Shown piece by piece: positions 16,740 through 35,210 of a stretch of DNA of 38,136 nt. A program made the translations under genes and the position numbers. A model generated the notes under the pieces. The model saw only the letters and a program-made list of their open reading frames with translations, was not told where the DNA came from and did not search any database. Each line of letters begins with the position of its first letter. Within the stretch, counting starts at the first letter, position 1. The stretch is from Methylosinus sporium (GTDB lineage: Bacteria > Pseudomonadota > Alphaproteobacteria > Rhizobiales > Beijerinckiaceae), in NCBI RefSeq assembly GCF_003113265.1, contig NZ_PUIV01000035.1, positions 1 through 38,136 of the forward strand. The letters run 5' to 3'.

Positions 16740-16786
16740 CAGCCAACCCCACAAAAATATCGGGTACAGCTTAGCTCCACTTTGCG

Positions 16787-19715: not shown

Positions 19716-19791
19716 TTCGTCACGCCGCCTCGCGGCGGTCCGCGTCTCGTCCCGAACAGAGCGGCAAACAACCGCTTTCCAGGAGATTTTC

Positions 19792-22017: not shown

Positions 22018-22024
22018 GCCTAGA

Positions 22025-22055
22025 GTCCTTCCGGTTCAGATCGAACCGGAAGGAC
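22025..22055. terminator. Perfect 13-bp hairpin after the receptor gene
   Basis: GTCCTTCCGGTTC (22025-22037), loop AGATC, and the exact reverse complement (22043-22055) start 7 nt after the receptor stop codon. No T-run follows, so it may be a factor-assisted terminator, an mRNA 3'-end stabiliser, or a member of a dispersed palindrome family. The preceding CTAGAG is also found before the palindrome at 32214. Confidence 0.6.
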
Positions 22056-22062
22056 AAAGGCG

Positions 22063-22290
22063 ATGCGCGCCGTCGATGCGGTCGACATATCCATCGTCCT
22101 CCACCTTTATCACGAAGGCGCGCTGATCCGTTCTCGTTGGACGAAGCGATCAATGTCTCGATCTGTCGCGGAATCGATGCGAGCGGCTCGTCGCGCTCGA
22201 TTGCGCCGATGGCGTCGTGACGAGCTTCGATCGGCTCGCCGACATCCCGCCGCTCTTGAAGAGCAGATTCTGGCGCTCGGCGTGAAGGCT
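22063..22290 (+). pseudogene. Decayed glycosyltransferase family 2 fragment
   Basis: Three short segments in three frames line up as the N-terminal part of a family 2 glycosyltransferase. These are VDISIVLHLYHEGALI in the first frame, PFSLDEAINV with RGIDAS in the second, and ERLVALDCADGVVTSF followed by LADIPPLLKSRFW in the third. The order matches the nucleotide-sugar-binding start of GT2 enzymes (a SIVL-hydrophobic strand, SLDEA helix, then VALD-D). Two frameshifts separate the segments, and the third frame ends at a stop at 22288-22290. The remainder of the enzyme is absent, so it is a truncated, inactivated remnant of a transferred or lost gene. The family call is based on pattern recognition of short pieces. 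Confidence 0.6.
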
Positions 22291-23208
22291 TCATCGCAAT
22301 ATGGAGCGTCGCTGGAAGACGGTGAGCCGAACGAAGACTGCGCGGCGAATTGCGGCGATCCGATCGCTGCCCTAAAAATCCTCTATCGAGCGCGACGACG
22401 TCCGACATCTTTCGTCTTTTGCGCGGGGAGCATTTTGTTCGGCGTGGGATTCCGGGGCGCGCCACGCTCCCCATTCGAGTGTGCCCATATCTATATCGAC
22501 TAGGAGTTGTTCATTACCACTGCCCAGACGAGCAGAGAAAAAAATTTCCGGTTCAATTTCAATTAACTGTGCGCGACTGACGCTGCGGCCGTCGAGCAGC
22601 GGATGGGCGCGACTCCGACCATCGGAAGATGATTCTTGTAATTACGCGCACTATAAAATCACGGACATCATTGCCTCCAACGAGCATCGGAATCACCCGC
22701 TATGCGGGTAAGTGTCGGGCTGATTTCCACTTTTTTCGGACGGGCGCGCGACGGGAAGGCTATGCCGGCTAATTACATTAGAAATGTAGAAAAGCGCCGA
22801 TGGTTGAATTTCCATCAGAATTGACAGCATCTGCGGATTCGGATAACCATTTAATGAATACAAAAAACGATATATATCAAATATTATGCACTCGGAGCGG
22901 CTAATGCATGGTCTTTGTCTCGATATGAGCAGCAGTATATCGGCGAGAGTGTGAGCGGATACGTTGGGTAAGCCGGTCGGGTGGCGTCCGAGCCCCGACT
23001 CGAGACGATTTCTTCGAGCGCCACCTTGCCTGCTGATCGACTTGCCGCCGATCGCGCGGCCGGGCCGGAGCGTACCATCAACCAGTCCGTCTCGCGCTGG
23101 ATACATCGAAAACGCGCGCCGCAAAGGGTCGGCGCTCGCAGGCGATCCGCGGCTTCGCTTCCTGCTCCTGCGGAAGAGAAAATTGCTTTTTGGAAGGGAA
23201 TATCTGTC
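22291..23208. other. Gene-free, relatively AT-rich stretch upstream of the biosynthetic cluster
   Basis: I find no convincing gene here. Frames on both strands lack recognisable domains and good start regions. From about 22500 to 22960 the sequence is visibly poorer in G+C than its neighbours. It contains a short dyad ACCCGC-TAT-GCGGGT (22695-22709) and another TACATT-AGA-AATGTA (22774-22788). An AT-rich TATAAAAT lies near 22650. The region probably carries the cluster promoter and leader, and the second dyad could be an operator. Confidence 0.5.
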
Positions 23209-24156
23209 ATGCACGGCCCGATGGCGAACGCCGCTCTGATCGATCGGCTCAATCAAGCCTCTGTGAACCACATCAATTTTCCGCTCGTGACACTGCCGTT
23301 CGACGAGGCGCCGGGCGAGCAATCCTATTGGATGCCGCCCGAGCTCACCACGCTTTATGGAACGGCAGTGTGGGATGAATTGAGCGAAGACCAGAAAATT
23401 GATCTCTCGCAAAAAGAATTCGCCTTGATTTGCTCGATCTCCTGCAATGGCGAGAAGGAGGCGATAGGCGATATCGCCAAAATCATGCTGAAAAGCAAAT
23501 TCGAGTCCGTGCGCTCTTATTTAAGTCATTTGATCCGAGAGGAAAACAATCATATCGACATGTTTGTCGAATTCTGCAATCGATATGGAGAACTTACACG
23601 TTTTCGCTATTTCTATACGAAAGGCGATCAATGCACCGATCCGGCCTTCAACGATCTGCTCGCCTTCATCCATCTTCTTGTTTTCGAGGAACTCGGCGAT
23701 AATATCAATCGGGTGATGGCGAGGGACAAGTCGCTCCCGCCTCTCGTCAGAGCGATCAACAAGCTGCACGCAGAAGAAGAAGCCCGGCATATCGCCTTCG
23801 GACGACACATCGTCACTGAACTCGCCACGGAGCTTTCGCGCAAGATAAGCGCAAATCAGACACGCAAGCTTCACGACTATGTGTATTCGCATATTCATAC
23901 GCGCCACTATGAATATCACAATATGAGGATTTACAGCTCCATCGGCATCGACAATGCCTTCAGCCTGCGCGAGCGCCTGGTTCTGGAGCGAGACGCATCA
24001 TTCTTCTTCCGCACGGAGTCCGATCCGCATACGCCCCTCAAAAAAATACTCACGTTTCTGCATTCGATCGGTCTGATCAGCGACGCCCAATTGCATGAAC
24101 CGCCGCGGCAAATGCTCAACGTAGAGCGCGCCGCCGAAACGCTGTGCGCACGCTGA
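23209..24156 (+). CDS. AurF-like non-heme diiron oxygenase
   Basis: The 315-aa protein resembles the AurF family (p-aminobenzoate N-oxygenase type), which oxidises amines to hydroxylamine, oxime or nitro products using a diiron centre and O2. The expected ligands appear in order: Glu82/84 (NGEKE), E112-x-x-H115 (EENNH), E160/E161 (VFEEL), then H187-xxx-E191-xx-H194 (HAEEEARH). The last pattern matches the HxxxExxH of AurF, with spacing close to that of AurF. Length is near the family norm of about 330. The ATG at 23209 follows AGGGAA at about 10 nt; the frame upstream looks non-coding. It is the first gene of the cluster. The substrate is unknown; the carrier protein and adenylation enzyme downstream suggest a tethered or free amino acid. 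Confidence 0.85.
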   Translation: MHGPMANAALIDRLNQASVNHINFPLVTLPFDEAPGEQSYWMPPELTTLYGTAVWDELSEDQKIDLSQKEFALICSISCNGEKEAIGDIAKIMLKSKFESVRSYLSHLIREENNHIDMFVEFCNRYGELTRFRYFYTKGDQCTDPAFNDLLAFIHLLVFEELGDNINRVMARDKSLPPLVRAINKLHAEEEARHIAFGRHIVTELATELSRKISANQTRKLHDYVYSHIHTRHYEYHNMRIYSSIGIDNAFSLRERLVLERDASFFFRTESDPHTPLKKILTFLHSIGLISDAQLHEPPRQMLNVERAAETLCAR

Positions 24157-24197
24157 GCTTCTCATCAATGTATTGGCAGCATAATAGGAGCATAGAT

Positions 24198-25319
24198 ATG
24201 AGCGGCTGCACTGAGAACACCTGCATAAGACTCCACAGCCTGCAGGGATTGGACAATTTCACTCCAGAAGAGAACGCGAATTTCTGGAGCAGAACCGCCG
24301 GCGGCAAAAATGTCGCTTTGCGGAACCTGGGCTTGAGCACGACGGATGCGTGCAATTACAATTGCGTCTATTGCTATGGCACGGAGGCCGCCAATCGCGA
24401 CAGCCGGCGCGGACCTTTGACGCTGGCGGAACAAAAAGACCTTATCGACCAGGGGATCGAGCTGGGCGTTCGAACCGTCATTATTTGCGGCAATGGCGAG
24501 CCGACCTACGACCGCGATCTGCTTGAAATCGTGAACTATGCTGGCAAAAATGATCTTTACACGGTCATATTGACCAATGGATTTACGCTCGGCGACGATG
24601 GAATGGCCAAGCGGATCTACGGCCTCTCCGCTTTCGACGTCGCGCAGACCCTATTCGACGCAAATGCGTCGCTGATCATCAAGACCGAAAGCATCAAAGA
24701 GGATGTCTACAACTCGATCGTGCTCGCGCGCGGCCTCGACAATCCGTTCAAAGGCTTCATGCAGGCGATCGATTCTGTGGTCAAGCTCGGTTTCACGGAC
24801 CCCTCCAAATCCGCTCCGGCGACAGATGCGACCATCCCGACCCGATTGGCGATCTCTTCCGTGATCTGCAAGAGGAATTTCCTCGATATTCCGGCTCTGC
24901 GGGCGTGGACGCACGGCATCGGCGCCCAATACATCTGCAAGCTGCCGACCTTGTCGGGCAATTCGAAGGGCAATCTCGGCGAGTTTTTCGACGTCAATTC
25001 GACGACAGCGTGGCTGAAGGAAAATTACGGCTATCACTATTCGGAAAAGCCGGAAACACTTTCAACGGACATGAATCATTGCGGCGCGTTTCACTTTGGC
25101 GTGGTCATCGGCAACACCGGCGACATTCGGCAATGTTATCCTATGGCTGCGCATGGCGACAACGCGATCGGCAACATTCGCGACAAGCGACTGAAAGAGC
25201 TGCTGATCGAGCGCTCGTCCAAATTCGCCGCCAATCTGGCGCATGGCGCAAAATGCAGCGTGAAGAAAAATGAATATGTCGCGTTAGACGAGATCGAAAT
25301 CGCATCCGTCGCCGAGTGA
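24198..25319 (+). CDS. Radical SAM enzyme
   Basis: The 373-aa protein starts at an ATG with AGGAG 7 nt upstream. CNYNCVYC (C52, C56, C59) is the CxxxCxxC motif that binds the 4Fe-4S cluster and S-adenosylmethionine. The GNGEP segment (98-102) is the SAM-contacting motif. Three later cysteines (C295, C313, C353), in NHCGAF, RQCYPM and AKCSVKK, resemble the C-terminal part of SPASM/twitch proteins and may bind an auxiliary cluster. Cysteines C4 and C9 lie at the N-terminus. There is no cobalamin domain. Such enzymes do radical chemistry on peptides or small molecules; no precursor peptide is evident nearby, so a small or carrier-bound substrate is more likely. It lies 41 nt after the oxygenase gene. 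Confidence 0.9.
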   Translation: MSGCTENTCIRLHSLQGLDNFTPEENANFWSRTAGGKNVALRNLGLSTTDACNYNCVYCYGTEAANRDSRRGPLTLAEQKDLIDQGIELGVRTVIICGNGEPTYDRDLLEIVNYAGKNDLYTVILTNGFTLGDDGMAKRIYGLSAFDVAQTLFDANASLIIKTESIKEDVYNSIVLARGLDNPFKGFMQAIDSVVKLGFTDPSKSAPATDATIPTRLAISSVICKRNFLDIPALRAWTHGIGAQYICKLPTLSGNSKGNLGEFFDVNSTTAWLKENYGYHYSEKPETLSTDMNHCGAFHFGVVIGNTGDIRQCYPMAAHGDNAIGNIRDKRLKELLIERSSKFAANLAHGAKCSVKKNEYVALDEIEIASVAE

Positions 25320-25356
25320 CCCGCGCGCCTCGTGCACAGCCGTCCAGGAGCAAACA

Positions 25357-25614
25357 ATGAAAAATACAGACAGGGAATTGTTTTACGACAAAATGCGGCA
25401 ATTCATCTGCGCGAGGTCCGGCTTCTCCCCTGAAAAAATTGCGCCGGATACGGCGCTCATCTCCTCTGGATTGCTGGACTCGTTGGCGGTGTCCGAATCC
25501 GTCTTCTTCGTGGAGGACTTCGTCGGCCGGCCAATCGAAATCGACGATTTTCGAATGATGACGTTCAACAGTATGGAACATATCTATAACACCTATATCG
25601 CTCCGAAGCCATGA
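25357..25614 (+). CDS. Free-standing acyl/peptidyl carrier protein
   Basis: The 85-aa protein has the carrier-protein four-helix pattern with SGLLDSLA at residues 37-44. S42 is the expected attachment site for 4'-phosphopantetheine. AGGAG precedes the ATG at a good distance. The stop overlaps the start of the adenylation gene as ATGA, which couples carrier and loading enzyme translationally, as expected for a partner pair. It probably holds an amino-acyl thioester while the neighbouring enzymes act. It is not the fatty-acid ACP, because its surroundings and sequence differ. No phosphopantetheinyl transferase is in the window. Confidence 0.88.
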   Translation: MKNTDRELFYDKMRQFICARSGFSPEKIAPDTALISSGLLDSLAVSESVFFVEDFVGRPIEIDDFRMMTFNSMEHIYNTYIAPKP

Positions 25615-27158
25615 ATAGCTTCTACGAACTGCTCGTCGGCGCCGCTGATCACTCGCCCGAACAGGAGGCGGTCATCAGCGGCGACGCGTCCTGGACCTAT
25701 CGCGAGTTGAAGGCGCTTACGGACCGCTATGTCGAACAGTTCGCCGCCTCGGGCGTCGGGCGCGGCTCGACCGTCGCCGTCATGCTCGAAAATCGGCCCG
25801 AAGCGATTGCGCTTTTTGCGGCCTGCGCAGCGTCGGGCGCGGTGTTCACGCCGATCGACGTTCACGCGCCCGACCAGAGGCGACGCGATCTGCTTTGCGA
25901 CGCGCAGCCCGATCTCGTCGTGACCGACGTGAGCTGCGCAGAATTCAGTGACGGCCGCCGGGGCGCGACATTGGTCGGTTCGGAGTTGCGCGTCGCCGAA
26001 GGAGGCGGCGCGCCGAAGGAGGCGAGAAACGACGGCCACCTTTACACCATCTACACCTCTGGCAGCACCGGGCGCCCCAAGGGAATTATGATGAGCGAAG
26101 GCGCCGCGCTTTCATTCTTTCGCGGGCTCCTCGAATTCATGCGCTTGCCGGCAGGCTCTCGGTATATGACCACCTCGCCGCTCCATTTCGACTATTTCTG
26201 GCTCGACGTCGGGCTGACGCTCGCATCCGGCGGCGTCCTGATTTTGCTCGACCGCGCGCAATTGCGCAAACCCGGCGCCTTTGTCGCCGCTATAGAGCGC
26301 TACGGCGCGGGCTATGTCAGCGCGGTTCCGACGATCTGGAAAATGGCGCTGCGCTTCGCCGCGGCCGATCTCGCCGAGCTCACGACGTTGCGGCGCATTG
26401 TCTTTGCCGGTGAACATTTCCCGCAACCGCATATTCGCGAACTCTACCGGCTCATCCCGGATTTGCGGATCGTGAATGTCTACGGTCAGTCCGAATCGAT
26501 CGCATGTGCGTTTCATCTTCTCCCCAATCCGCTTCCGGCGGGACTGCAACATCTTCCGGTGGGAAGGGGCCATTGCGAAGCGGAGCTGTTTTTGATCGAC
26601 GATAACGGCCGCGAAATTCGGGAGCCGTTTCGACGCGGCGAATTATATCTCGAGGGACAGCTTCTTTTTTCCGGCTATTCGAACGGGCGGGATGAGACGG
26701 CGAAGCGCCTGCTTCCCGACCCCCGCAGCGGGACGGGAACGACCTTCCGGACGGGCGACATCTGCTATTTCGACGACGACGGGGTCTTCTATTTCGTTCG
26801 CCGCGCCGACAGTCAGGTGCAGGTCGCGGGCAATCGCGTCGAGCCGGCGGAAATAGAGGCGGTGATCGGCCGGCATGAAGATGTGAACAATGTCGCCGTC
26901 GTCGCAATGGAATCGGAGGGGGCGATCACGCTTCATGCGTTTGTCGTGCCCTGCGTCGGCAATGGAGCGCACGACCTCGAAGAGCGGCTGCGGTCTTATT
27001 GCGCAGCGCATTTGCCCTATTACATGAGCCCGCGCGCTTATCACCTCGTGGAAGGGATACCGATCGGCGCCACGGGAAAGAATGATGTGAACGCCTTGCG
27101 CGGGCTGCTTCTCGACGGAGGCGGCGAGCGCGGGGTCTGCGAGCTCCCGGCCTCATAG
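25611..27158 (+). CDS. AMP-forming adenylation enzyme (stand-alone NRPS-type A domain)
   Basis: The 515-aa protein activates a carboxylic acid with ATP and should load it on the carrier protein encoded just upstream. Visible motifs are A3 YTSGSTGRPKG (148-158), A4 HFDYFW (192-197), A5 NVYGQSES (from 289), A7 FRTGD, A8 GNRVEPAEIE and A10 with the catalytic Lys in ATGKND. D194 in the A4 motif aligns with the Asp that binds the alpha-amino group in GrsA-type domains, so an alpha-amino acid is the likely substrate; this rests on my alignment by eye. There is no fused carrier, condensation, thioesterase or reductase domain, so only the loading step is present. The start overlaps the carrier stop. 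Confidence 0.88.
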   Translation: MNSFYELLVGAADHSPEQEAVISGDASWTYRELKALTDRYVEQFAASGVGRGSTVAVMLENRPEAIALFAACAASGAVFTPIDVHAPDQRRRDLLCDAQPDLVVTDVSCAEFSDGRRGATLVGSELRVAEGGGAPKEARNDGHLYTIYTSGSTGRPKGIMMSEGAALSFFRGLLEFMRLPAGSRYMTTSPLHFDYFWLDVGLTLASGGVLILLDRAQLRKPGAFVAAIERYGAGYVSAVPTIWKMALRFAAADLAELTTLRRIVFAGEHFPQPHIRELYRLIPDLRIVNVYGQSESIACAFHLLPNPLPAGLQHLPVGRGHCEAELFLIDDNGREIREPFRRGELYLEGQLLFSGYSNGRDETAKRLLPDPRSGTGTTFRTGDICYFDDDGVFYFVRRADSQVQVAGNRVEPAEIEAVIGRHEDVNNVAVVAMESEGAITLHAFVVPCVGNGAHDLEERLRSYCAAHLPYYMSPRAYHLVEGIPIGATGKNDVNALRGLLLDGGGERGVCELPAS

Positions 27159-27474
27159 GGGGCCTTTCGGGATCCGGCGCGATTTGGCGCCGCGCCGAAA
27201 AAGGCGCCGCGCGCTGGAGCAGGATTTCTATCGCAAGCGCGTCGCCGGCTTTGCGGCGGGGCTCGACCGTGACGCGGCGAGGCGGAACGGCGGAGAAAAA
27301 CGGCGAAGAATGGAGACTTGAACTGCTTCGACGAGCGAAGGCATAGTCGGCGTCGGTCCTGGACGCGACGAGGGCGCTGCTTTCGCAGCCCTTCCTTTTT
27401 GCGGCCGGTTCCACTAGCGGCAGGCAGTCGTGTCTCGACGTGGCTGACAAAACATTTTGAAGAGGATAATCGCC
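27159..27474. other. Intergenic stretch inside the biosynthetic cluster
   Basis: This 316-bp gap is the only large break in the cluster. I see no gene in it. It carries a direct repeat GGCGCCGCGC at about 27188 and 27206. Further along is a hairpin with T-run. It may divide the cluster into two transcription units or hold a leader that controls the second one. Confidence 0.5.
27371..27400 (+). terminator. Hairpin with T-run (terminator or attenuator) before the IPMS-like gene
   Basis: GCTGC (27376-27380), loop TTTC, and GCAGC (27385-27389) form a stem, extended by AGGG/CCTT pairs around one bulged C and followed by CCTTTTT (27394-27400). It lies about 75 nt upstream of the gene for the isopropylmalate-synthase-like enzyme. 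It could end the upstream unit or act as an attenuator, as known for some leuA genes. No leader peptide rich in one amino acid was seen. Confidence 0.5.
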
Positions 27475-29211
27475 GTGAACTCGCTCGATGGAAAATACAG
27501 GCCCTATCCCCCGATCGCTCTCCCCGGCAGGACTTGGCCCGATCGCGTCATCGCGCATCCGCCGATCTGGTGCAGCGTCGATTTGCGCGATGGCAATCAG
27601 GCGCTGATTCAGCCGCTCGGCATCGACGCCAAGGTGGAGTTCTTCTCGCTGCTGGTCGGCATCGGGTTCAAGGAGATCGAGATTGGTTTTCCCGCGGCGT
27701 CTGAAACCGAATATGCATTCGTTCGTCGCCTGATCGAGGAAAACCGGATTCCGGACGACGTCACCGTTCAGGTGCTGGTGCAGGCGCGCGAGCATCTTAT
27801 CCACAAAACCTTCGAGGCGCTCGCCGGCGTCAAACGGGCGATCGTCCATCTCTACAACTCCACCTCCAGCGTGCAGCGTCGGGTCGTTTTCCGCAAGGAC
27901 AGGAAAGAAATCATCGATATCGCCGTCGAGGGCGCGCGTCTCGTGCAGCAATCCGCGGCGGCGCTCGCGGACACGGATGTCCTGTTTCAATATTCTCCAG
28001 AAAGCTTCACGGGAACGGAGCTCGACTTCGCTGTGCAAATTTGCGAAGCGGTCGCCGACGTCTGGCAGCCGTCCCGCGAGCGCAAGATCATCATCAATCT
28101 TCCCGCCACCGTCGAGCTGTCGACGCCGAATATCTATGCGGACCAAATCGAATGGTTCTGCCGGAATTTCGATTATCGTGACGCCTCGATCATCAGCATT
28201 CACACCCATAATGATCGCGGCACCGGCATCGCCGCCGCCGAATTCGGCCTGATGGCCGGCGGCGAACGCATCGAGGGCACGCTCTTCGGCAATGGCGAAC
28301 GCACCGGCAACGCCGACATCGTCACTCTGGCGCTGAATATGTTCAGCCAGGGCGTGGCCCCTGGTCTCGATCTGGCGAATCTCCCGCAGATCGCCCGGAT
28401 CGTGGCGCGCAACAATCAGATTCCGATCGGCGCCCGCCATCCCTATGCCGGGGATCTCGTATTCACCGCCTTTTCGGGCTCGCATCAGGACGCTATTCGC
28501 AAGGGGCTGGCCGCGCGACGGGTCGAAAGGGCGCCGCTTTGGGAGGTGCCCTATCTGCCGATCGATCCGGCGGATATCGGCCGGCACTACGAGCCTGTGG
28601 TCCGCATCAACAGCCAGTCCGGCAAGGGTGGCGTCGCCTATATTCTGGAAGACCACTGTGGCTATCAGATTCCCCGCGACCTTCAGATCGAGTTCAGCCA
28701 GATCGTGCAAGAAATTTGCGACGAAACCGGCAAAGAGCTGACGCCGAGCGAAATCGGCGAGGTGTTTCGCGCGGCCTATATGCCTGACGAGCCGTTCCGG
28801 CTCGGCAATCATGAGACCCGCTGCGACGTCGTCAATGAAACGACATCGCTTACCTGCGTCATTCGGCAAGGCGACGCGTCGCGGGAGATCAGCGGCAATG
28901 GCACAGGGCCGCTCAGCGCTCTCGTCAATGCGCTTCGTGAAGCTTTCGGCTTTCAGCTTTCCGTCCTCGACTACCATGAACATGCGATCGGCGAAGGACA
29001 GGACGCCTGCGCGATCAGCTATGCCCAGTGCAGCGTCGACGGCAAGCCGCCACGATATGGGATCGGCATTCATCGCAGCACCGAGGTGGCGACGCTCATC
29101 TCGGTCATCAGCTCCGTTAATCTGTCGATTCAGGGTTCCGACGAAGCCGGCGAGGTCGAGCGACCGCGGCGGATTCGCCAAATCGAGGAACAAAATAATG
29201 GCGCAGGTTAA
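27475..29211 (+). CDS. 2-isopropylmalate synthase-like (LeuA family) condensing enzyme
   Basis: The 578-aa protein belongs to the LeuA/DRE-TIM metallolyase family, which condenses acetyl-CoA with a 2-oxo acid. DLRDGNQAL (36-44) carries the metal-binding and catalytic Arg-Asp region, and HTHND (243-247) supplies metal ligands. The C-terminal regulatory domain is present, with the GNGTGPLSALVNAL stretch, so length and layout match the long LeuA type. The GTG at 27475 follows AGAGG; a TTG at 27457 is an alternative start. The last 14 nt overlap the aminotransferase gene. It could be the housekeeping leucine enzyme. Its setting, with no leuB/C/D nearby but with an aminotransferase and an RraA-like gene, suggests a dedicated paralog making an extended or branched 2-oxo acid; this is inference. 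Confidence 0.88.
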   Translation: MNSLDGKYRPYPPIALPGRTWPDRVIAHPPIWCSVDLRDGNQALIQPLGIDAKVEFFSLLVGIGFKEIEIGFPAASETEYAFVRRLIEENRIPDDVTVQVLVQAREHLIHKTFEALAGVKRAIVHLYNSTSSVQRRVVFRKDRKEIIDIAVEGARLVQQSAAALADTDVLFQYSPESFTGTELDFAVQICEAVADVWQPSRERKIIINLPATVELSTPNIYADQIEWFCRNFDYRDASIISIHTHNDRGTGIAAAEFGLMAGGERIEGTLFGNGERTGNADIVTLALNMFSQGVAPGLDLANLPQIARIVARNNQIPIGARHPYAGDLVFTAFSGSHQDAIRKGLAARRVERAPLWEVPYLPIDPADIGRHYEPVVRINSQSGKGGVAYILEDHCGYQIPRDLQIEFSQIVQEICDETGKELTPSEIGEVFRAAYMPDEPFRLGNHETRCDVVNETTSLTCVIRQGDASREISGNGTGPLSALVNALREAFGFQLSVLDYHEHAIGEGQDACAISYAQCSVDGKPPRYGIGIHRSTEVATLISVISSVNLSIQGSDEAGEVERPRRIRQIEEQNNGAG

Positions 29212-30400
29212 TTTACTGAGTTCCAGAAGCAGCCATCTGAACAGCGAAGGCGTCTATCCTGCGGGTTGGCGCATCGTCTCTGCGAAAAACTGTGACGTCG
29301 TTCTCGAGCGCGAAGGCCGGGAGCGGAGATTTGTCGACCTGACCAGCTCCTATGGAGCCGTGAATTTCGGCCATCGCAATCCGCAGATCGATCCGTTCCT
29401 CGATGCGCCCGCCGATCTCACGACGGGCTGTTACCCGCGGGAGGCGGACGATCTCTCGAGCTGGCTGTGCGAGCGTTTGCGGCTGCCGTTCCATCGCGTC
29501 CTGTTTCAGGTCGGCGGCAGTTTCGCGGTCACCAGCGCTTTGGCGATCGCGCAACGCCAACGCCCGGGAAAGATCGTCGCCATCGCGGGGGCGTTTCATG
29601 GATTAGGGCTGGATTCTCTGGCCGCGACGACCGCCCAGCGCGATTGGGCGCTGCAGGATTCCCGCCTCGCGAAGCATTTGCGCACGGAAGTCGTTCATAT
29701 CCATGAGGGCGATCCTGAGCCGGACTGGAACAAGGCGTCCTGTTTTCTGTTCGAGCCGGTTCAGGGCGCCAACGGCTATATTCCGCTGGACTTGGAATGG
29801 ATCGGCAATCTCGTCGATTCCGCGCGCAGCCATGGCGTCACGATCATCGCGGATGAGATTCAGGCGGGCTTTTTTCGCCATGGCCATCTCAGCCCGACGC
29901 GCTCGGCCGGCATAGACTCCGACATTCATCTTTTCAGCAAATCGATGACCAATGGTCAGTCCCCATTGTCTGCGGTCGTTTACGATGAGCGTTTCGATGA
30001 AGCGGTGCGGCTGGATTCGGCGCTCGCTCATACGTTTCAAACATCGGTCTACGGCTACAGGGCCGGTAGCGCCGTCGCCCTGTATCTCGACGCAAATCCG
30101 CCTTTCGCCTCCGTCAACGCCATCCAGGCGCGCCTCGAATGCATGGCGATCGAATTGAGGACGGTCGTCGGGGTCGAGCAGGTTCATGTGACGGGGCCGT
30201 CGCTTTCCTTCGGACTTGGGCGCCCGTCGATCGCGCGCGCGGCGATTCTGGAATGCTTCGAACGCGGCATCATGATCCTCGGCGGCGGCGCAGGCGGCGA
30301 GCGCATTCGCGTGGCGCCGCCGCTGACGATCGACGCCGCGGCGCTCGACGAAAGCGCCGAAATCGTGCTGGACGTCCTGGCGCGCCTACCGTTGCAATGA
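29198..30400 (+). CDS. Class III PLP-dependent aminotransferase
   Basis: The 400-aa protein has the class III fold signature. FHG lies at 133-135, the cofactor Asp is in IADEIQAGF (D219), and FSKSM carries the PLP lysine K248. The N-terminal LTSSYGAVNFGHRNP is the usual approach to the active site. Class III enzymes transfer amino groups to omega-amino or semialdehyde substrates and include aminomutases. The ATG at 29198 lies inside the end of the IPMS-like gene and is preceded by GAGGAA, so it is translationally coupled. It probably aminates the product of the adjacent condensation or aldol step to make an unusual amino acid; the exact substrate is not visible. The stop overlaps the next start as ATGA. 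Confidence 0.88.
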   Translation: MAQVNLLSSRSSHLNSEGVYPAGWRIVSAKNCDVVLEREGRERRFVDLTSSYGAVNFGHRNPQIDPFLDAPADLTTGCYPREADDLSSWLCERLRLPFHRVLFQVGGSFAVTSALAIAQRQRPGKIVAIAGAFHGLGLDSLAATTAQRDWALQDSRLAKHLRTEVVHIHEGDPEPDWNKASCFLFEPVQGANGYIPLDLEWIGNLVDSARSHGVTIIADEIQAGFFRHGHLSPTRSAGIDSDIHLFSKSMTNGQSPLSAVVYDERFDEAVRLDSALAHTFQTSVYGYRAGSAVALYLDANPPFASVNAIQARLECMAIELRTVVGVEQVHVTGPSLSFGLGRPSIARAAILECFERGIMILGGGAGGERIRVAPPLTIDAAALDESAEIVLDVLARLPLQ

Positions 30401-31122
30401 ATGATTATTACTCGGCCATTTCAGGGAGCGCGGCAATGGCGCCTTTCATCGACCGTTATGAACCACGGCAGATCGTCCAATTTTCCGCCGAGCTGAGCAA
30501 GCTCGGCTGCGCTCAAATCTATGACGCGGCGCCGAATTATTGTCACCCGCTGCCCGCCTTCCTCACGTCACGGGGAACGGCGCGCACGCTCGCCGGCCCT
30601 GTATTTCCGGTCTCGACGCTCAACGACATGTTGCCGCTGTTGCAGGCATTGGATCAGGCCCCCCCGGGGTGGGTTCTGTACGTCCGGAATGTAGCGCCGG
30701 AATCCGAAGCGCTCGCAGGCGATATTTTCATGAGCGCGATGCGGTCTCAGGGCCTGAGCGGCCTGGTCGTGGACGGCGCAGTTCGCGACATCGGATCGTT
30801 CGACGCCACGACGCCGCCGGTGTTTTCGAGATCCGTGACCTTCGTATCGGCGAAGACCGCGAAGGCGCCGGCCGGAGAGACGCCGACGACGCTCGACTAT
30901 GGCGCCTATCGAATCGAGCCGGGAGACTATGTGGTAGGGGACGCCGACGGACTGCTGCTGATCAAGCAGCAATATCTGACTGCGGTCATAGTCGGCGCAC
31001 GCCATTTGCTCGCAAAGGAATTCGAGCTCAAAGAGCGCCTCGAAAGCGGACGCCGGCTCGGCGATCTGATCGGTTTGTCGGCCTTTCTGCAGGGCAATGG
31101 GCCTTTGAAATTCGAAGTCTGA
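30397..31122 (+). CDS. RraA-like family protein (aldolase/decarboxylase fold)
   Basis: The 241-aa protein matches the RraA/4-hydroxy-4-methyl-2-oxoglutarate aldolase family. GLVVDGAVRDIGSF (122-135) is the core signature, with D126, R130 and D131 corresponding to substrate and metal contacts. The IEPGDYVVGDADGLLLI stretch is the family's second conserved block. Members cleave or decarboxylate 2-oxo acids such as HMG or oxaloacetate with a divalent metal. Some homologs are instead RNase E regulators, which the biosynthetic context makes less likely here. The ATG overlaps the aminotransferase stop (ATGA). With the IPMS-like enzyme and aminotransferase it could form a C-C bond-making or breaking module for a building block; this is inference. 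Confidence 0.8.
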   Translation: MNDYYSAISGSAAMAPFIDRYEPRQIVQFSAELSKLGCAQIYDAAPNYCHPLPAFLTSRGTARTLAGPVFPVSTLNDMLPLLQALDQAPPGWVLYVRNVAPESEALAGDIFMSAMRSQGLSGLVVDGAVRDIGSFDATTPPVFSRSVTFVSAKTAKAPAGETPTTLDYGAYRIEPGDYVVGDADGLLLIKQQYLTAVIVGARHLLAKEFELKERLESGRRLGDLIGLSAFLQGNGPLKFEV

Positions 31123-31141
31123 CGGGTTCGGGGGAAGAACG

Positions 31142-31702
31142 ATGAACCGCATGACCACCGAGCATTTGGCGCCGGCCTTCGGGGACGCACCGATTGCTTC
31201 CGACGAAGAGATGCGACGCCGCCTGCATGAATTTCTCGGCGCGCCCATTCCGATCTCACCCGAAGCGATGCGCGCCGCGCTGGAAAATCCCGCCTATGCG
31301 CTACGATTGATGGAGGCGACAGGAGACGCCGAACAGCTGACCGAGCTTCTGCGCGCGCCCGACGGCGGCGGGCGCGAAACATCGGGCCCTGGAGACGGCG
31401 AATTGCTGGCGCATGCCGCTGCGGCTTTCGCGCGATGGGCGAAAACCGGCTTCGCAATGGTGGCGAGGCCCGTTTATCAGCATCGTCTCGCGACATGTCA
31501 CGCCTGCAATCATCTCGGCGACGCGCCGGCTGAACGCCTTGTCTACCGTCTACTGTCGAACGCCGGCAAAGAGCATAAAATCTGCACGCAATGTGGATGC
31601 TTCGTCGTCCGCAAGGCCAAGCTGCCGACCGAGAACTGTCCCGTTGCGAGTTCGACCAATCCGCAGGAGAGCCGATGGGGAGAGCCCATGACACAGCGAT
31701 AG
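31142..31702 (+). CDS. Unrecognised protein with C-terminal zinc-ribbon-like motif
   Basis: The 186-aa protein starts after GGGGGAAG. I do not recognise the family. The N-terminal half (about 20-70) is helical and charged. The middle is Gly-rich (73-87). The C-terminal part has TCHACNHL (C119, C122), then ICTQCGCF (C148, C151, C153) and finally NCPV (C166). This C-x2-C, C-x2-C-G-C, then C-P pattern resembles small zinc-ribbon proteins found in phage and other accessory regions, in which a KxxxxxxxCP tail is common. It could be a metal or Fe-S carrier, a protein partner for the radical SAM enzyme, or a sulfur-relay component with SufE downstream. It has no signal peptide. Its place between RraA-like and sufE genes makes it part of the cluster. 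Confidence 0.7.
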   Translation: MNRMTTEHLAPAFGDAPIASDEEMRRRLHEFLGAPIPISPEAMRAALENPAYALRLMEATGDAEQLTELLRAPDGGGRETSGPGDGELLAHAAAAFARWAKTGFAMVARPVYQHRLATCHACNHLGDAPAERLVYRLLSNAGKEHKICTQCGCFVVRKAKLPTENCPVASSTNPQESRWGEPMTQR

Positions 31703-31766
31703 AGGCGGCGGCTTTTTTCGCGGCGAGGTCTTCGTGGTGGAGCATGTACATTCGGGAAAATGATCC

Positions 31767-32213
31767 ATGACAACGATCGACGAAATCATCACGCAGTTCG
31801 ATCTTCTCGACGACTGGGACGATCGCTATCGCTATGTCGTCGAACTCGGGCGCGCTCTCGAATCCTTTCCCGATGAGCTGAAGACCGAGCAGAACAGGGT
31901 GCATGGCTGTGTCAGTCAGGTCTGGCTGTGGACGACGCTACAAGACAAAGATCGCACTCCGCCGTCGCTCGCGATACGCGGCGACAGCGATGCCTATATC
32001 GTCCGCGGTCTGGTCGCGATCCTGCTGGCATATTGCCTCGGAAAAAACGCCGCCGAACTTTTGCAGGCGGATCCGGGCGAATTGTTCGAGCGCCTCGGAT
32101 TGGGAAACCATCTGACGCCGCAACGCTCCAACGGCTTCAGATCGATGATCGCCCGGATTCGCGCCGACGCCCACGCTGCGCTCGTAGCTTGCGACAGCGG
32201 ACCCGTCGCCTAG
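31767..32213 (+). CDS. sufE: SufE-family sulfur acceptor
   Basis: The 148-aa protein matches SufE, which accepts persulfide sulfur from the cysteine desulfurase SufS. RVHGCVSQVW (from residue 44) carries the acceptor C48. The length and the N-terminal FDLLDDWDDRYRYVVELG are typical. It is the last gene of the cluster, 64 nt after the zinc-ribbon gene. No sufS, sufB, sufC or sufD gene is nearby. It may help supply Fe-S clusters for the radical SAM enzyme or deliver sulfur to the product; which one cannot be read from sequence. It could also be the general SufE and only adjacent by chance. Confidence 0.9.
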   Translation: MTTIDEIITQFDLLDDWDDRYRYVVELGRALESFPDELKTEQNRVHGCVSQVWLWTTLQDKDRTPPSLAIRGDSDAYIVRGLVAILLAYCLGKNAAELLQADPGELFERLGLGNHLTPQRSNGFRSMIARIRADAHAALVACDSGPVA

Positions 32214-32258
32214 TCTAGAGTTTCCAGCCGAAGTGGACGCCGGTTCGGCGTTGGAAAC
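32214..32258. repeat. Intergenic palindromic element (Rhizobiales-type)
   Basis: Directly after the sufE stop, TCTAGAG leads into GTTTCCAGCCGAA (32220-32232). Then comes GTGGACGCCGG, and then TTCGGCGTTGGAAAC (32244-32258), which pairs with the first arm with two unpaired bases. The form CTAGAG plus imperfect stem with a GTGG-CCGG centre resembles dispersed intergenic palindromes known from Hyphomicrobiales genomes. The resemblance is from memory. Confidence 0.6.
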
Positions 32259-32274
32259 GCATCAAAACAAAAGC

Positions 32275-32317
32275 CTGGAGTCTTTGCGTGTTTCAATGAA
32301 ACACGCAAAGACTCCAG
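32275..32317. terminator. Perfect 21-bp inverted repeat between convergent genes
   Basis: The arms at 32275-32295 and 32297-32317 are exact reverse complements around a single A (core GTGTTTCA-A-TGAAACAC). The element lies between the converging sufE gene and the minus-strand secreted-protein gene, so it can serve both as a transcript end. No T-run is present. Such long perfect symmetry is unusual for an ordinary terminator. Confidence 0.7.
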
Positions 32318-32388
32318 AGTCCGGCGCGCATGCGGGCCGTCCCGAAATTTCCGCCACAGCCGTCCGAAGCGGAGATTCGGGAGACGCG

Positions 32389-32766
32389 TCAACGTTGCAG
32401 GATCGGCGATCCGCCATGGGCCGCGGGCATTCGATAAGGAATGACCGAAACGCCGAAATTTGGTCCATATTGCTGGCGTATGGCCGGCATGTTGACGACG
32501 CCGGTCTTCAGATCGGAGGATCTCGCGTCGACCGGCGGCGCTTCGACAAATGGCCGCGCCTTGTCGACCGCGCTCCGCAGTCGCCGATTGAGGCAGCCGA
32601 ACGCCAGATCGTTTCCGATCTGCACATCGACGCAGGTCGAGAACGCGGCTCTCCGCGGCGCTTCGCCGCCGATGACGAGTCCGCCGTTCGGCGCGGCGGC
32701 GTCATTCGCATGGCACGGCGCAGCGAGCACAATGGCTGTCAGAATGGCGAGAATGGGAGATTGCAC
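32389..32766 (-). CDS. Small secreted hypothetical protein
   Basis: The 125-aa protein starts at GTG (32766) with GGAGGG upstream. The first about 20 residues (MQSPILAILTAIVLAAPCHA) form a signal peptide with a good AxA-like cleavage site. The mature part contains two Cys (STCVDVQIG and FGCLNRRL), which could form a disulfide in the periplasm. A conserved-looking stretch PPVDARSSDLKTGVVN is followed by QQYGPNFGVSVIP. I do not know its function. It follows the lytic transglycosylase gene by 54 nt on the same strand, at the end of the secretion gene cluster, so it may be part of that envelope system. Confidence 0.75.
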   Translation of the reverse strand: MQSPILAILTAIVLAAPCHANDAAAPNGGLVIGGEAPRRAAFSTCVDVQIGNDLAFGCLNRRLRSAVDKARPFVEAPPVDARSSDLKTGVVNMPAIRQQYGPNFGVSVIPYRMPAAHGGSPILQR

Positions 32767-32820
32767 GGTCGGTCCCTCCGAACGATGGATCGCGGCGCCA
32801 TCCGCCGCCCGCGTGACGTC

Positions 32821-33618
32821 TCACCGCAGCCGCACGGCGTTTGCGCTCGCCTGGACGACGGCGTGATCGAGACGGGCGTTGATCGCGCCGAAGTCGAGGG
32901 CGGCCTGGCCGGACGCCGCGAGGCAGTTTCGACGACATCCGGCGCCGAGCGCCGAGCCGAGCCGGGATCGCGGCGGGTCGCCGAAGGTTGCGATCGGCAG
33001 GGCTCCGGTGACGCGATAGCCGCGCGCCGCGAGCTTGGCGCGCACGGCGAAGCAATAGTCGACAGACCGATGAGAAAATCGCGTCTCGCCATGGCCGGCG
33101 CGATATTTCATGACCGCCGTGCAGAGGTCGCCGCCGGCGAGGCGCCAGGCGCCCGCGAGATATTTCACGCCGTAGTGAATATTGGCCTCGGGAGCCGCGA
33201 GCCCCTCGATTCTGCCCACGAATCCGAGCGCGCGCGCCGTCGAGGGCAGCACTTGCATGAGGCCGATCTCGCCGACCGAGCCGATGGCGTGCGGATCGTA
33301 GCCGCTCTCGACCGCCATGACGGCGTCGGCGATCTCGCCCGGCATTCCTGTTCGACGCGCTTCCGCTTCGGCTAGCGCGCGATAGAAGGTGGGCGAGCCC
33401 GGCCGCTGCTGCGGCGCGGCCGCTCTGGCGGCGTCGACGGCCGAAGGCGTCGCGCTCGGCTCCGGTTTCGAAGCGGGCGCTCCCTGGCTCGTCTCTTCGG
33501 CGGCGAGCAGAGCGCCGGGCGGCGGCACGGAGACCGCGAGAACGCCGAGCATCGTCCAAGTCGGACGCCTCCCGCCACGCGCTCGGGCTTCGCGGCGATC
33601 ATGCGCCCCGCCGCTCAA
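32821..33618 (-). CDS. Periplasmic lytic transglycosylase (SLT domain)
   Basis: The protein cleaves peptidoglycan glycan strands. The SLT domain shows the catalytic Glu in MAVESGYDP, then VGEIGLMQVLPSTARALG, and KYLAGAW with MKYRAGHG, all expected blocks. I take a TTG start at 33618, which overlaps the upstream stop as TTGA and gives 265 aa with a basic N-region (RREARARGGRR) and hydrophobic segment before AAEE, a plausible export signal. An ATG at 33552 is the alternative. The frame remains open further upstream to 34110, but that part overlaps the TonB-like gene and reads as shadow sequence. It could open the cell wall for assembly of the type II secretion apparatus; this is inference from position. 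Confidence 0.88.
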   Translation of the reverse strand: MSGGAHDRREARARGGRRPTWTMLGVLAVSVPPPGALLAAEETSQGAPASKPEPSATPSAVDAARAAAPQQRPGSPTFYRALAEAEARRTGMPGEIADAVMAVESGYDPHAIGSVGEIGLMQVLPSTARALGFVGRIEGLAAPEANIHYGVKYLAGAWRLAGGDLCTAVMKYRAGHGETRFSHRSVDYCFAVRAKLAARGYRVTGALPIATFGDPPRSRLGSALGAGCRRNCLAASGQAALDFGAINARLDHAVVQASANAVRLR

Positions 33619-34076
33619 TTTTGGCCCCGCAGCGAAAGTTTCAGATGCAGAGGCTGCGACATATCGTCCGGCGGCGGCGCGCCCACATCCCGTCCCGCGA
33701 GAAGGGCGCGCAGCGCGACGGCCTCCGCGACGTCTATTCCCTCGAAATCGGCGCGCTCGATTTTTCCATTCGCCAGAATCCAGAGACGCGCGATGAAACT
33801 CGGCGTCGCTCCTTGCTGCTGCGAGCGCGCTTCCAGGGACGCGCGCAGCCGGCGCCCCGGCTCGTCGTCCTGCCCGAGCCAGTCCTGAACCCGGCGCTGA
33901 ACCAAAGATGCGTAGTTCAGCCATGCGGCCGGCGCGCCCTCTAGGGAACGGTAGGCGGCGGCCTGCGTCGGCGCCGGTCCGGGAAGCAGGGCGCCCGTCG
34001 CCACGATCCCCGATCCGAGCCATTTCGCCAAGGCGCCCGCCAATCGGGCGAGGGGCGATCGTTTCTGCTTCGACAT
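33615..34076 (-). CDS. TonB C-terminal-domain-like protein
   Basis: The 153-aa protein starts at an ATG at 34076 (MSKQKRSP). A membrane anchor or signal segment lies at about residues 16-38. The C-terminal half resembles the TonB/TolA C-terminal fold: YASLVQRRVQDWL, then FIARLWILANGKIERADFEG, ending with GAPPPDDMSQPLHLKLSL. This is shorter than a normal TonB and lacks the long Pro-rich spacer. It may be a periplasmic connector protein related to secretion rather than the energy-coupling TonB. The transglycosylase gene overlaps its stop. A 117-bp gap (34077-34193) separates it from the gsp genes upstream; I see nothing in that gap. Confidence 0.65.
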   Translation of the reverse strand: MSKQKRSPLARLAGALAKWLGSGIVATGALLPGPAPTQAAAYRSLEGAPAAWLNYASLVQRRVQDWLGQDDEPGRRLRASLEARSQQQGATPSFIARLWILANGKIERADFEGIDVAEAVALRALLAGRDVGAPPPDDMSQPLHLKLSLRGQN

Positions 34077-34193
34077 TGCTGTTCTTTGCCTTCGAGACGA
34101 ATAGGCCCACGGCGCGACGACGGCGGCCCTATTCGAGAGACGACGCGCGAGGGTCCAACCCGAAGACCAGGCCGCCGAAATCCGAAACAAAGT

Positions 34194-34658
34194 TCACCGC
34201 TGCGTCTTTCGCATAGCGGTCTTCGTCGACTGGCGCCTCGCTTCGAACATCGCGAAGGCTTTGGTGCGCCGGTCTTGCGCCAGGACGATGCGGGTCGGCT
34301 CGATCTCGGCGACCTTCCAGCCGCTGAGGTCGTCGCCGATCCGCGCGGCGCGAACCTTGTCCATCGGATTGAGCCGGACGAAAGCGCGCGTCCCTCGCTC
34401 GTCGGTCAGAACGCCGACGAGAACGACGTTCGGCGGCTCGGGCGGCGGCGGCTCGACCTCGAGCCGCGTCGCGACGGCGGGCGGCGGCGGCGGCCGTCGG
34501 CTCGGCGAGAACAGTGGCTGGTCGCGCGTCGCGGTGAAACGCTCGAGCGGCAGCCGCGCCAGAGGATTGACCTGCGCGCGCGCCGTCGTCTCCTGCGCCG
34601 CGACGCGCGCGAGCGACCAAACGAGAAGGGCGAGCGCGGCGAGCAGCGAGGTTCTCAT
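34194..34658 (-). CDS. Type II secretion protein GspN/GspC-like
   Basis: The 154-aa protein has an N-terminal membrane segment (LLAALALLVWSLARV) and then FTATRDQPLFSPSRRPPPPP, the Pro-rich motif typical of the Xanthomonas-type GspN and short GspC proteins. A small domain follows with VVLVGVLTDERGTRAFVRL and GDDLSGWKVAEIEPTRIVL, similar to the periplasmic homology region of GspC that contacts the secretin. The start at 34658 overlaps the GspM stop (ATGA). It would link the inner-membrane platform to the outer-membrane secretin. GspC and GspN cannot be told apart with certainty here. Confidence 0.7.
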   Translation of the reverse strand: MRTSLLAALALLVWSLARVAAQETTARAQVNPLARLPLERFTATRDQPLFSPSRRPPPPPAVATRLEVEPPPPEPPNVVLVGVLTDERGTRAFVRLNPMDKVRAARIGDDLSGWKVAEIEPTRIVLAQDRRTKAFAMFEARRQSTKTAMRKTQR

Positions 34659-35206: not shown

Positions 35207-35210
35207 GGCG

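What the first reader, a model, noticed from the sequence alone, without database searches (positions are those of the whole stretch)
23209..32213. Compact nine-gene biosynthetic cluster with no known counterpart that I recognise
An AurF-like diiron oxygenase, a radical SAM enzyme, a free carrier protein and a stand-alone adenylation enzyme are followed by LeuA-like, class III aminotransferase, RraA-like, zinc-ribbon and SufE genes, all on one strand with short gaps or overlaps. Parts of this set occur in diazeniumdiolate (fragin/leudiazen) and Pseudomonas virulence factor pathways, which combine AurF-like N-oxygenases with NRPS proteins, but those lack the radical SAM, LeuA-like and RraA-like genes. 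A plausible product is a small N-oxygenated, possibly sulfur-containing amino-acid derivative. No condensation, thioesterase or reductase domain and no exporter is visible.
Basis: partly seen in the sequence, partly recalled or inferred. Interest (0 to 1): 0.85.

Follow-up and report, generated by a model that had tools for sequence, protein, structure and literature searches.

The report
Orphan N-oxygenase biosynthetic gene cluster
A probable methane-oxidising bacterium carries a block of nine enzyme genes, not found as a set in the genomes searched, that most likely loads an unusual (probably beta-) amino acid onto a small carrier protein and oxidises its nitrogen to make an unknown small molecule.

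Summary
Nine intact genes lie on one strand (23209-32213): AurF-like diiron oxygenase, radical SAM enzyme, free carrier protein, stand-alone adenylation (A) enzyme, LeuA, class III aminotransferase, RraA-like, zinc-ribbon, SufE. One gap (A to leuA) is 316 bp, so two tight sub-operons are possible. LeuA, RraA and SufE are not the only genome copies; this LeuA is 24% identical to the other two. The block looks acquired: DNA conservation with same-genus genomes stops at the end of the upstream TonB gene and resumes at 32.39 kb, and 0 of 9 same-genus genomes has this aurF. No locus tested matched more than two of the nine proteins by tblastn. A pmoA-type gene suggests a methanotroph host. New lead: in a 16-row tree the A enzyme groups (100/99) with stand-alone enzymes from beta-amino-acid settings, not with NRPS domains. 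AurF relatives mostly lie near carrier-protein charging enzymes (7 of 11 loci). Best reading: N-oxygenation of a (beta-)aminoacyl-carrier protein, with LeuA and aminotransferase supplying the substrate. The product and the roles of the other four enzymes are unknown. Not a ham/pvf member: separate A and carrier, no reductase domain, no HamA/HamE. A new variant of a known kind.

The parts
22023..32388 (.). segment, probably acquired, that holds the whole cluster (boundaries from comparison with same-genus genomes)
   Evidence: DNA conservation with G005 covers window 17006-22022 (90.8%) and 32389-36623 (77.7%), with G003 17031-22017 in two pieces. The nine proteins have no tblastn match in G005 C2 12500-32400 at E 1e-3 nor in C2 1-12600 at 1e-10. 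Not a clean empty site: in G005 the left block is inverted, with its TonB end 641 bp from a contig start, and the right flank begins at 28254. GC is 53-64% here, but the conserved TonB gene next door is also low (59-61%), so GC alone does not mark the boundary.
23209..24156 (+). AurF-like diiron oxygenase (315 aa)
   Evidence: PF11583 119 bits; E70, E112, H115, E160/E161, H187, E191, H194 invariant in 8 aligned sequences, spacing as in AurF's seven ligands (ligand positions recalled)
24198..25319 (+). radical SAM enzyme with CxxxCxxC (C52, C56, C59) and further Cys at 247, 295, 313 and 353 (373 aa; GTG 24144 or ATG 24168 are other possible starts)
   Evidence: PF04055 51.5 bits; best NCBIfam matches are StsB, archaeal MoaA and MftC models, all far below cut-off; 30% identical to a Cereibacter plasmid enzyme
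25357..25614 (+). free carrier protein (85 aa), presumed phosphopantetheine Ser42 in DSL
   Evidence: alignment A2, S42 invariant in 7 of 7; weak NCBIfam match to an ACP model; structure prediction inconclusive, pLDDT 53.8
25611..27158 (+). stand-alone adenylation enzyme (515 aa) of beta-aminoacyl-ACP synthetase type; Asp194 in FDYFWLDVGL
   Evidence: PF00501/PF13193; best solved relatives titled b-aminoacyl-ACP synthetase; tree support 100/99
27475..29211 (+). LeuA-like 2-isopropylmalate synthase (start GTG 27475; TTG 27457 also possible)
   Evidence: NF002991 825 bits and TIGR00970 749 bits, both above cut-off; M. tuberculosis 2-isopropylmalate synthase (1sr9) E 8e-187 over residues 13-546 (species recalled)
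29198..30400 (+). class III (PLP) aminotransferase, FSKSM motif with Lys248
   Evidence: PF00202 127 bits; no solved chain at E 1e-20
30397..31122 (+). RraA-like / oxaloacetate decarboxylase-aldolase type protein, RD motif (GAVRD) present
   Evidence: PF03737 88.1 bits; solved relatives 2pcn, 3noj
31142..31702 (+). zinc-ribbon protein (CxxC ... CxxCGC), function unknown
   Evidence: DUF6171 match below cut-off; 8 plasmid records with a homologue, 5 opened
31767..32213 (+). SufE-like sulfur acceptor
   Evidence: PF02657 145 bits; second copy elsewhere in the genome
32215..32326 (.). genus-wide repeat with a perfect 20-bp hairpin (32275-32317), at the 3' end of the cluster

Best explanation
A probably acquired, thiotemplated pathway in a probable methanotroph. 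The stand-alone A enzyme activates an amino acid, most likely a beta-amino acid, and loads it onto Ser42 of the free carrier protein. The AurF-like diiron enzyme then oxidises the amine of the tethered aminoacyl group to a hydroxylamine, oxime or nitro group. LeuA (2-oxoacid plus acetyl-CoA to a 2-alkylmalate) and the class III aminotransferase make the substrate, helped by the host's leucine enzymes; the RraA-like enzyme is the candidate for a decarboxylation or aldol step. The radical SAM enzyme modifies the carbon skeleton before or on the carrier. SufE, and perhaps the zinc-ribbon protein, serve Fe-S upkeep or sulfur transfer. Shown: families, metal-ligand pattern, A-enzyme placement, set absent at the matching sites of two same-genus genomes. 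Inferred: substrate, order of steps, release, product.
For: Families and order. A enzyme: of the 20 plasmid rows listed, six annotated AMP-binding proteins score 268-311 bits and the best NRPS module 210; of five of those six opened, 3 lie beside a phenylalanine aminomutase (close copies of each other), 1 near a lysine 2,3-aminomutase, 1 near neither; tree support 100/99. AurF relatives: an aaRS-like amino acid:carrier ligase in 7 of 11 neighbourhoods (annotations); of the other four, one has an NRPS and one a stand-alone A enzyme, ACP and NRPS. Published precedent: the AurF homologue HamC oxidises carrier-tethered L-valine (PMC11659414, passages). Co-location: synteny breaks, 0 of 9 same-genus genomes with the aurF at E 1e-10.
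Against: No other genome with the set was found, so common function is not shown by conservation. The 316-bp gap, a terminator-like match inside it (27376-27389, at chance level) and different GC (aurF, rSAM, ACP 49-55%; A to sufE 60-63%) allow two merged pieces. The beta label rests on neighbours' annotations and PDB titles; the window A enzyme is a long branch, 36% identical at best, and joins the five outside them; a linear gramicidin synthase module scores almost as well in the PDB. No aminomutase of known type is in the cluster. Release enzyme, exporter and regulator are missing. The radical SAM enzyme, zinc-ribbon and SufE have no assigned step.
Confidence: 0.45

Rival explanations
1. 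A ham/pvf-like route: an alpha-amino acid of the valine/leucine type (boosted by the extra LeuA) is loaded on the carrier and N-oxygenated; the aminotransferase acts late, like HamG, and the product is a signal or metallophore.
For: HamC acts on tethered L-valine, hamG is an aminotransferase, a LeuA gene lies near ham in eight of nine Burkholderia strains (passages); LeuA aligns to the M. tuberculosis enzyme over 534 residues.
Against: A enzyme groups away from NRPS A domains; no reductase domain and no HamA or HamE counterpart among the nine; the aminotransferase was not compared with HamG.
Confidence: 0.25
2. Two unrelated sub-operons that happen to adjoin: aurF-rSAM-ACP-A makes one metabolite; leuA-AT-rraA-znr-sufE is a metabolic or stress operon.
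For: 316-bp gap with a terminator-like match at 27376-27389 (such matches are at chance level, 9 found, 10.6 expected); GC of aurF/rSAM/ACP 52/55/49% against 60-63% for A to sufE; zinc-ribbon homologues lie in unrelated phage-tail- or Tc-like loci in the 4 annotated cases opened.
Against: The A gene shares the GC of the second group but overlaps the ACP gene; the nine genes fill one segment; the Cereibacter relative of the radical SAM gene also lies two genes from an HMGL-type synthase, though that synthase is only 26% identical to this LeuA.
Confidence: 0.18
3. The AurF-like enzyme is not an N-oxygenase but a C-H oxygenase or CylC-like dimetal halogenase acting on an acyl-carrier protein.
For: CylC-type halogenases are described as having low homology to N-oxygenases and three cyanobacterial clusters pair them with a nitronate monooxygenase (PMC8406957, passages); nitronate monooxygenase genes also lie beside three AurF relatives here.
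Against: The protein matches the Pfam AurF model at 119 bits and most relatives examined lie near amino-acid:carrier ligases, which bring an amine to the carrier. No CylC sequence was compared.
Confidence: 0.08

Closest known systems
ham / mgo / pvf diazeniumdiolate clusters (fragin, valdiazen, leudiazen)
   Same: AurF-type oxygenase with an adenylation and a carrier unit, an aminotransferase (HamG) and often a LeuA gene nearby (PMC5878181, PMC11659414, passages)
   Different: Here A and carrier are separate proteins, A is of beta-amino-acid type, no reductase domain, no heme-oxygenase-like HamA, no HamE; extra radical SAM, RraA-like, zinc-ribbon and SufE genes
beta-aminoacyl-ACP synthetases of macrolactam pathways (VinN, IdnL1, CmiS6, HitB) with their free ACPs
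   Same: stand-alone A enzyme plus stand-alone ACP (PMC11284099, passages); like core motifs in the alignments to solved enzymes; same group as plasmid enzymes from beta-amino-acid settings (the named macrolactam enzymes were not tree rows)
   Different: no polyketide synthase, second A enzyme, acyltransferase or amidohydrolase among the nine; an N-oxygenase instead
Azospirillum argentinense plasmid p5 cluster
   Same: by the record's labels: class III aminotransferase, stand-alone A enzyme, ACP, AurF-like enzyme and a radical SAM-type arginine 2,3-aminomutase in one run, so five of the nine kinds (that the aminomutase is radical SAM is recalled)
   Different: by tblastn only AurF and A domains match this cluster; adds NRPS, PKS, methyltransferase and TauD-type genes; its A enzyme groups with NRPS domains; no LeuA, RraA or SufE in the stretch
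AurF-like / carrier protein / aaRS-like amino acid:carrier ligase / nitronate monooxygenase modules (Tistrella, Streptomyces NBC_01431, Agrobacterium vitis plasmids)
   Same: AurF relative (29-32% identical) next to a small carrier protein and a charging enzyme
   Different: charging enzyme is an A enzyme here; no nitronate monooxygenase
trichostatin, actinonin and matlystatin hydroxamate pathways
   Same: AurF homologues shown (TsnB7) or proposed (ActI, MatA) to make N-O groups (PMC5719088, passages)
   Different: AsnB-like amide or hydroxylamine transfer; no beta-type A enzyme mentioned in those passages

Membership tests
AurF family (PF11583) | profile match above the curated cut-off | tested here: met
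   119 bits, cut-off 29.6
AurF family (PF11583) | diiron ligand set | tested here: met
   Glu/His positions invariant in 8 sequences with E-x2-H and H-x3-E-x2-H spacing; assignment of ligands is recalled
AurF family (PF11583) | N-oxygenase activity | not testable with these tools
   needs enzyme assay; single-sequence structure model unusable, pLDDT 37.7
ham/mgo/pvf diazeniumdiolate clusters | A-T-R NRPS-like protein | tested here: not met
   A enzyme has only AMP-binding and AMP-binding_C; carrier separate; no reductase domain among the nine
ham/mgo/pvf diazeniumdiolate clusters | HamA (heme-oxygenase-like) and HamE (polyketide cyclase-like) partners | tested here: not met
   no such family named among the nine proteins
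ham/mgo/pvf diazeniumdiolate clusters | AurF-type oxygenase | tested here: met
   not compared with a HamC sequence
beta-aminoacyl-ACP synthetases | phylogenetic placement with the group | tested here: met
   100/99 with 5 stand-alone enzymes in a 16-row tree of chosen rows, 3 of the 5 close copies; best PDB matches 7dq5 and 8yyr are titled b-aminoacyl-ACP synthetase
beta-aminoacyl-ACP synthetases | stand-alone enzyme with free cognate ACP | tested here: met
   ACP gene overlaps the A gene by 4 bp
beta-aminoacyl-ACP synthetases | a source of a beta-amino acid in the cluster | tested here: inconclusive
   no aminomutase family called; radical SAM enzyme or aminotransferase could serve
beta-aminoacyl-ACP synthetases | selectivity for beta-amino acids | not testable with these tools
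   needs loading assay
2-isopropylmalate synthase (LeuA) | match above an NCBIfam LeuA cut-off, catalytic and regulatory domains | tested here: met
   NF002991 825 bits (cut-off 455), TIGR00970 749 (697); HMGL-like, IPMS_D2, LeuA_dimer
SPASM/twitch radical SAM enzymes | CxxxCxxC plus auxiliary-cluster cysteines | tested here: inconclusive
   CxxxCxxC present; C247, C295, C313 shared with the Cereibacter relative, but far below the cut-offs of the NCBIfam models listed

The most novel reading that the evidence does not exclude
A minimal pathway that N-oxygenates a beta-aminoacyl-carrier protein. LeuA plus host LeuCD/LeuB give 2-isopropyl-3-oxosuccinate; the class III aminotransferase traps it as 3-isopropylaspartate (an analogue of VinN's substrate 3-methylaspartate); the beta-type A enzyme loads it; AurF oxidises the beta-amine; the resulting beta-hydroxylamino or oxime thioester closes onto itself to an isoxazolidin-5-one or isoxazol-5-one, which would explain the missing thioesterase. 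No step of this chemistry has been tested here.
Probability: 0.12. Interest if true: 0.8.

Novelty: new variant of a known kind. Interest (0 to 1): 0.55.

Why it matters
The best documented AurF-type enzyme on a carrier protein (HamC) works in an NRPS setting on an alpha-amino acid. A nine-gene, megasynthase-free route with a beta-type loading enzyme would extend tethered N-oxygenation to beta-amino acids and would be a compact system for finding N-O natural products, here in a probable methanotroph. It also gives a divergent radical SAM enzyme in a small, testable pathway.

Tried and rejected
TonB/metallophore link: the siderophore-type TonB receptor upstream (19426-22017; TIGR01783 above cut-off) looked like part of the system, but the HK-RR-TonB block is conserved in G005 (90.8% DNA identity over 5,024 bp) and G003 (81-82% in two pieces), which had no AurF match. 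Set aside as an inherited neighbour; the metallophore idea is not excluded.

GC as sole evidence of acquisition: rejected, because the conserved TonB gene also lies in the dip (59-61%); the synteny comparison carries the claim.

Zinc-ribbon plus SufE as a sulfur-transfer module: of 8 plasmid records with a zinc-ribbon homologue, 5 were opened; the 4 with annotation are phage-tail- or Tc-like, the fifth has none, and none of the five has a SufE match. No support.

Same cluster elsewhere: genome-contig scan with AurF, 26 stretches, 0 relatives; with the radical SAM alignment, 42 stretches, 3 weak relatives, none with another cluster gene by tblastn. AurF at E 1e-10: 2 of 198 other relatives, 0 of 9 same-genus; at 1e-18: 1 of 397 others in the phylum. 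Radical SAM at 1e-30: 0 of 384 others in the class, 0 of 397 others in the phylum. The draws overlap. Sensitivity is limited: the radical SAM scan did not return the Cereibacter gene known (whether that plasmid is held in the collection is not known). Of the 17 plasmid records with an AurF relative, 8 were opened; 9 were not. ACP in plasmids: no match.

Structure prediction: single-sequence models of ACP and AurF were too poor to use, so no fold search was run.

Error found in my own work: in the scripts the TonB query began out of frame (19800), so its protein identities and its GC3 value are void and not used; the DNA alignments are unaffected.

That is true of tblastn matches only; by annotation L013, L014 and L027 hold AurF, carrier protein and A-type enzyme, and L027 five kinds. 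The terminator-like match in the A-leuA gap and the low GC of TonB were added.

Full report
What is there. The window is one whole contig (G000:C39) of a 3.79-Mb genome in 55 contigs, rated 100% complete. The genome carries a PF02461 (AMO) gene at 362 bits, with no match in 14 control genomes, so the host is probably a methanotroph; its name was not established. Families were checked with Pfam and NCBIfam. The weakest calls are the carrier protein (no Pfam match, a weak NCBIfam match, a conserved DSL serine in an alignment of seven carrier proteins) and the zinc-ribbon protein (DUF6171 below cut-off).

Organisation. Gaps are 41, 37, -4, 316, -14, -4, 19 and 64 bp. The 316-bp gap before leuA holds no promoter-like match and one weak terminator-like match at 27376-27389; in that scan both kinds were at chance level (4 against 3.8 expected, 9 against 10.6). 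A perfect 20-bp hairpin lies about 60 bp after sufE. It belongs to a repeat of about 100 bp with 37 matches counted in this genome (one is the hairpin's own reverse) and matches in 7 of 8 other same-genus genomes drawn, but in 0 of 4 other genomes of the order (scored candidates are capped at 40 per genome).

Acquired segment. In the same-genus genome G005, window 17006-22022 (histidine kinase, response regulator, TonB receptor) aligns at 90.8% and 32389-36623 at 77.7%; in G003, 17031-22017 aligns in two pieces at 81-82%. Conservation thus stops at the TonB stop codon and resumes just after the repeat. In G005 the left block is inverted, its TonB end 641 bp from the contig start, and the right flank begins at 28254, so this is not a clean empty site. 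AurF had no match in the 9 same-genus genomes searched. GC over 22-32 kb is 53-64%; 22 of the 25 one-kb steps outside 19-32 kb are 64% or more. But the TonB gene, which is conserved in the genus, also lies at 59-61%, so GC is weak evidence. The TonB receptor is older in the genus than the cluster and is not counted as part of it.

Not housekeeping. The genome has three LeuA_dimer proteins, two SufE and two RraA-like, the cluster's included. The cluster LeuA is 24% identical to each of the other two, and SufE 56% to the other one. LeuA is of the M. tuberculosis/yeast type: E 8e-187 to the solved enzyme 1sr9, with the stretches DLRDGNQALI, NLPATVE and HNDRGT shared. That these line the 2-oxoisovalerate pocket is recalled, not tested.

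The A enzyme. The best solved relatives are 7dq5 and 8yyr, titled b-aminoacyl-ACP synthetase, at E 6e-85 to 8e-85, then 5jjq (7e-84; that it belongs to this group is recalled), closely followed by a linear gramicidin synthase module (2e-82), so this alone would be weak. In plasmids, 20 of 295 records were listed; the top six rows are AMP-binding proteins at 268-311 bits and the best NRPS module among the rows scores 210. Five of the six were opened: three lie beside a phenylalanine aminomutase, one near a lysine 2,3-aminomutase, one near neither. A tree of 16 chosen rows (the window, those five, four NRPS modules of the same list, five A-type enzymes from AurF loci and a second enzyme of the Paenibacillus locus) puts the window enzyme with those five at 100/99. 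Caveats from the same call: the window branch is long (0.92), its best identity is 36%, it joins outside the other five, three of the five are close copies, and the root is by midpoint. The core motifs agree: FDYFWLDVGL, GEHFP and YGQSESIAC in the window against FDFSLLDMGL/FDFSLLDIGL, GEKFP/GEVFP/GEEFP and FGQSESIAC/FGSTESIAC in that group. PMC11284099 (passages) describes such A enzymes as each loading a free ACP.

The AurF-like enzyme. Relatives found are 24-32% identical. Eleven neighbourhoods were examined: an aaRS-like amino acid:carrier ligase is present in 7 (Tistrella, two Streptomyces, Agrobacterium vitis, G098, G068, G658; by tblastn, with annotations). Of the other four, one has an NRPS (Nostoc), one a stand-alone A enzyme, ACP and NRPS (Azospirillum), one neither (Tsukamurella), and one record has no annotation, with a weak A-domain match (Photobacterium). 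The relatives thus tend to lie with enzymes that charge carriers with amino acids. In the window that role would fall to the A enzyme. Known precedent: HamC on tethered valine (PMC11659414, passages).

The radical SAM enzyme. It is divergent: at E 1e-30 no match in 384 other class genomes or 397 other phylum genomes. Its best plasmid relative, 30% identical, lies in Cereibacter sphaeroides beside a methyltransferase gene and an HMGL-type synthase annotated isopropylmalate/homocitrate synthase. Two loci that pair this radical SAM type with an HMGL-type synthase are suggestive, no more.

Co-occurrence. In the 20 loci tested with all nine proteins (E 1e-3) and three longer stretches (E 1e-4), none matched more than two of the nine. 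The pairs were AurF with an A domain (5 loci), the radical SAM relative with a 26% LeuA-like match (L010), and SufE with a generic radical SAM gene annotated pqqE (L021), AurF with a weak A match (L061) and AurF with a carrier match (L063). tblastn misses carriers: by annotation the Streptomyces loci L013 and L014 hold AurF, carrier and AMP-binding proteins, and Azospirillum L027 also a class III aminotransferase and an arginine 2,3-aminomutase. No AurF locus showed LeuA, RraA-like, SufE or this radical SAM enzyme by tblastn. So the full set is, on present evidence, known from one genome.

Literature. Searches for AurF-like with radical SAM, carrier protein and isopropylmalate synthase, SufE with radical SAM and N-oxygenase and isopropylmalate synthase with N-oxygenase and radical SAM showed no title or abstract start that describes this combination; the library holds open-licence papers only. 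Passages were read in PMC5878181, PMC11659414, PMC8406957, PMC11284099, PMC10849742, PMC5719088, PMC11705231 and PMC11964084; none was read whole.

Verdict. A real, intact, probably acquired and so far unmatched small biosynthetic cluster; most likely a carrier-tethered N-oxygenation pathway on a (beta-)amino acid. The main weakness is that one genome gives no conservation test of common function, and four of the nine enzymes have no firm step.

Noticed in passing
window 3-16790, minus strand: A single open frame of 5,596 codons runs to the contig end; near its start it reads DTLEPRVLLNAD, an LEPR-xLL-like signature (name recalled), suggesting a giant repetitive surface-type protein.
   Followed up: no
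window 32210-32326: A repeat of about 100 bp with a perfect 20-bp hairpin, 37 matches counted in this genome and matches in 7 of 8 other same-genus genomes drawn, 0 of 4 others of the order: a genus-specific palindromic element.
   Followed up: partly
L027 938-14765 (Azospirillum argentinense plasmid p5): A run of class III aminotransferase, metal-dependent hydrolase, stand-alone A enzyme, ACP, methyltransferase, AurF-like enzyme, NRPS, PKS, TauD-type and arginine 2,3-aminomutase genes, perhaps another N-oxygenated product.
   Followed up: no
L010 11881-19438 (Cereibacter sphaeroides 2.4.1 plasmid): A radical SAM, methyltransferase, HMGL-type synthase, PLP transferase and asparagine synthase-type run flanked by IS66 genes; an unassigned small cluster.
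   Followed up: no
L011 11950-15235, L013 11875-14823, L026 6606-9609: Recurring module of AurF-like enzyme, carrier protein, aaRS-like amino acid:carrier ligase and nitronate monooxygenase in Tistrella, Streptomyces and Agrobacterium vitis; one paper search did not name a product.
   Followed up: partly
window 22018-23208: 1.2 kb of low-GC (about 54%) sequence between the TonB receptor and aurF without a convincing gene; it starts where conservation with two same-genus genomes ends.
   Followed up: no
L076 12667-17433 (same-genus genome G003): A domains 28-29% identical to the window A enzyme lie a few kb from G003's copy of the HK-RR-TonB block, so that block may serve an NRPS siderophore cluster there.
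   Followed up: no
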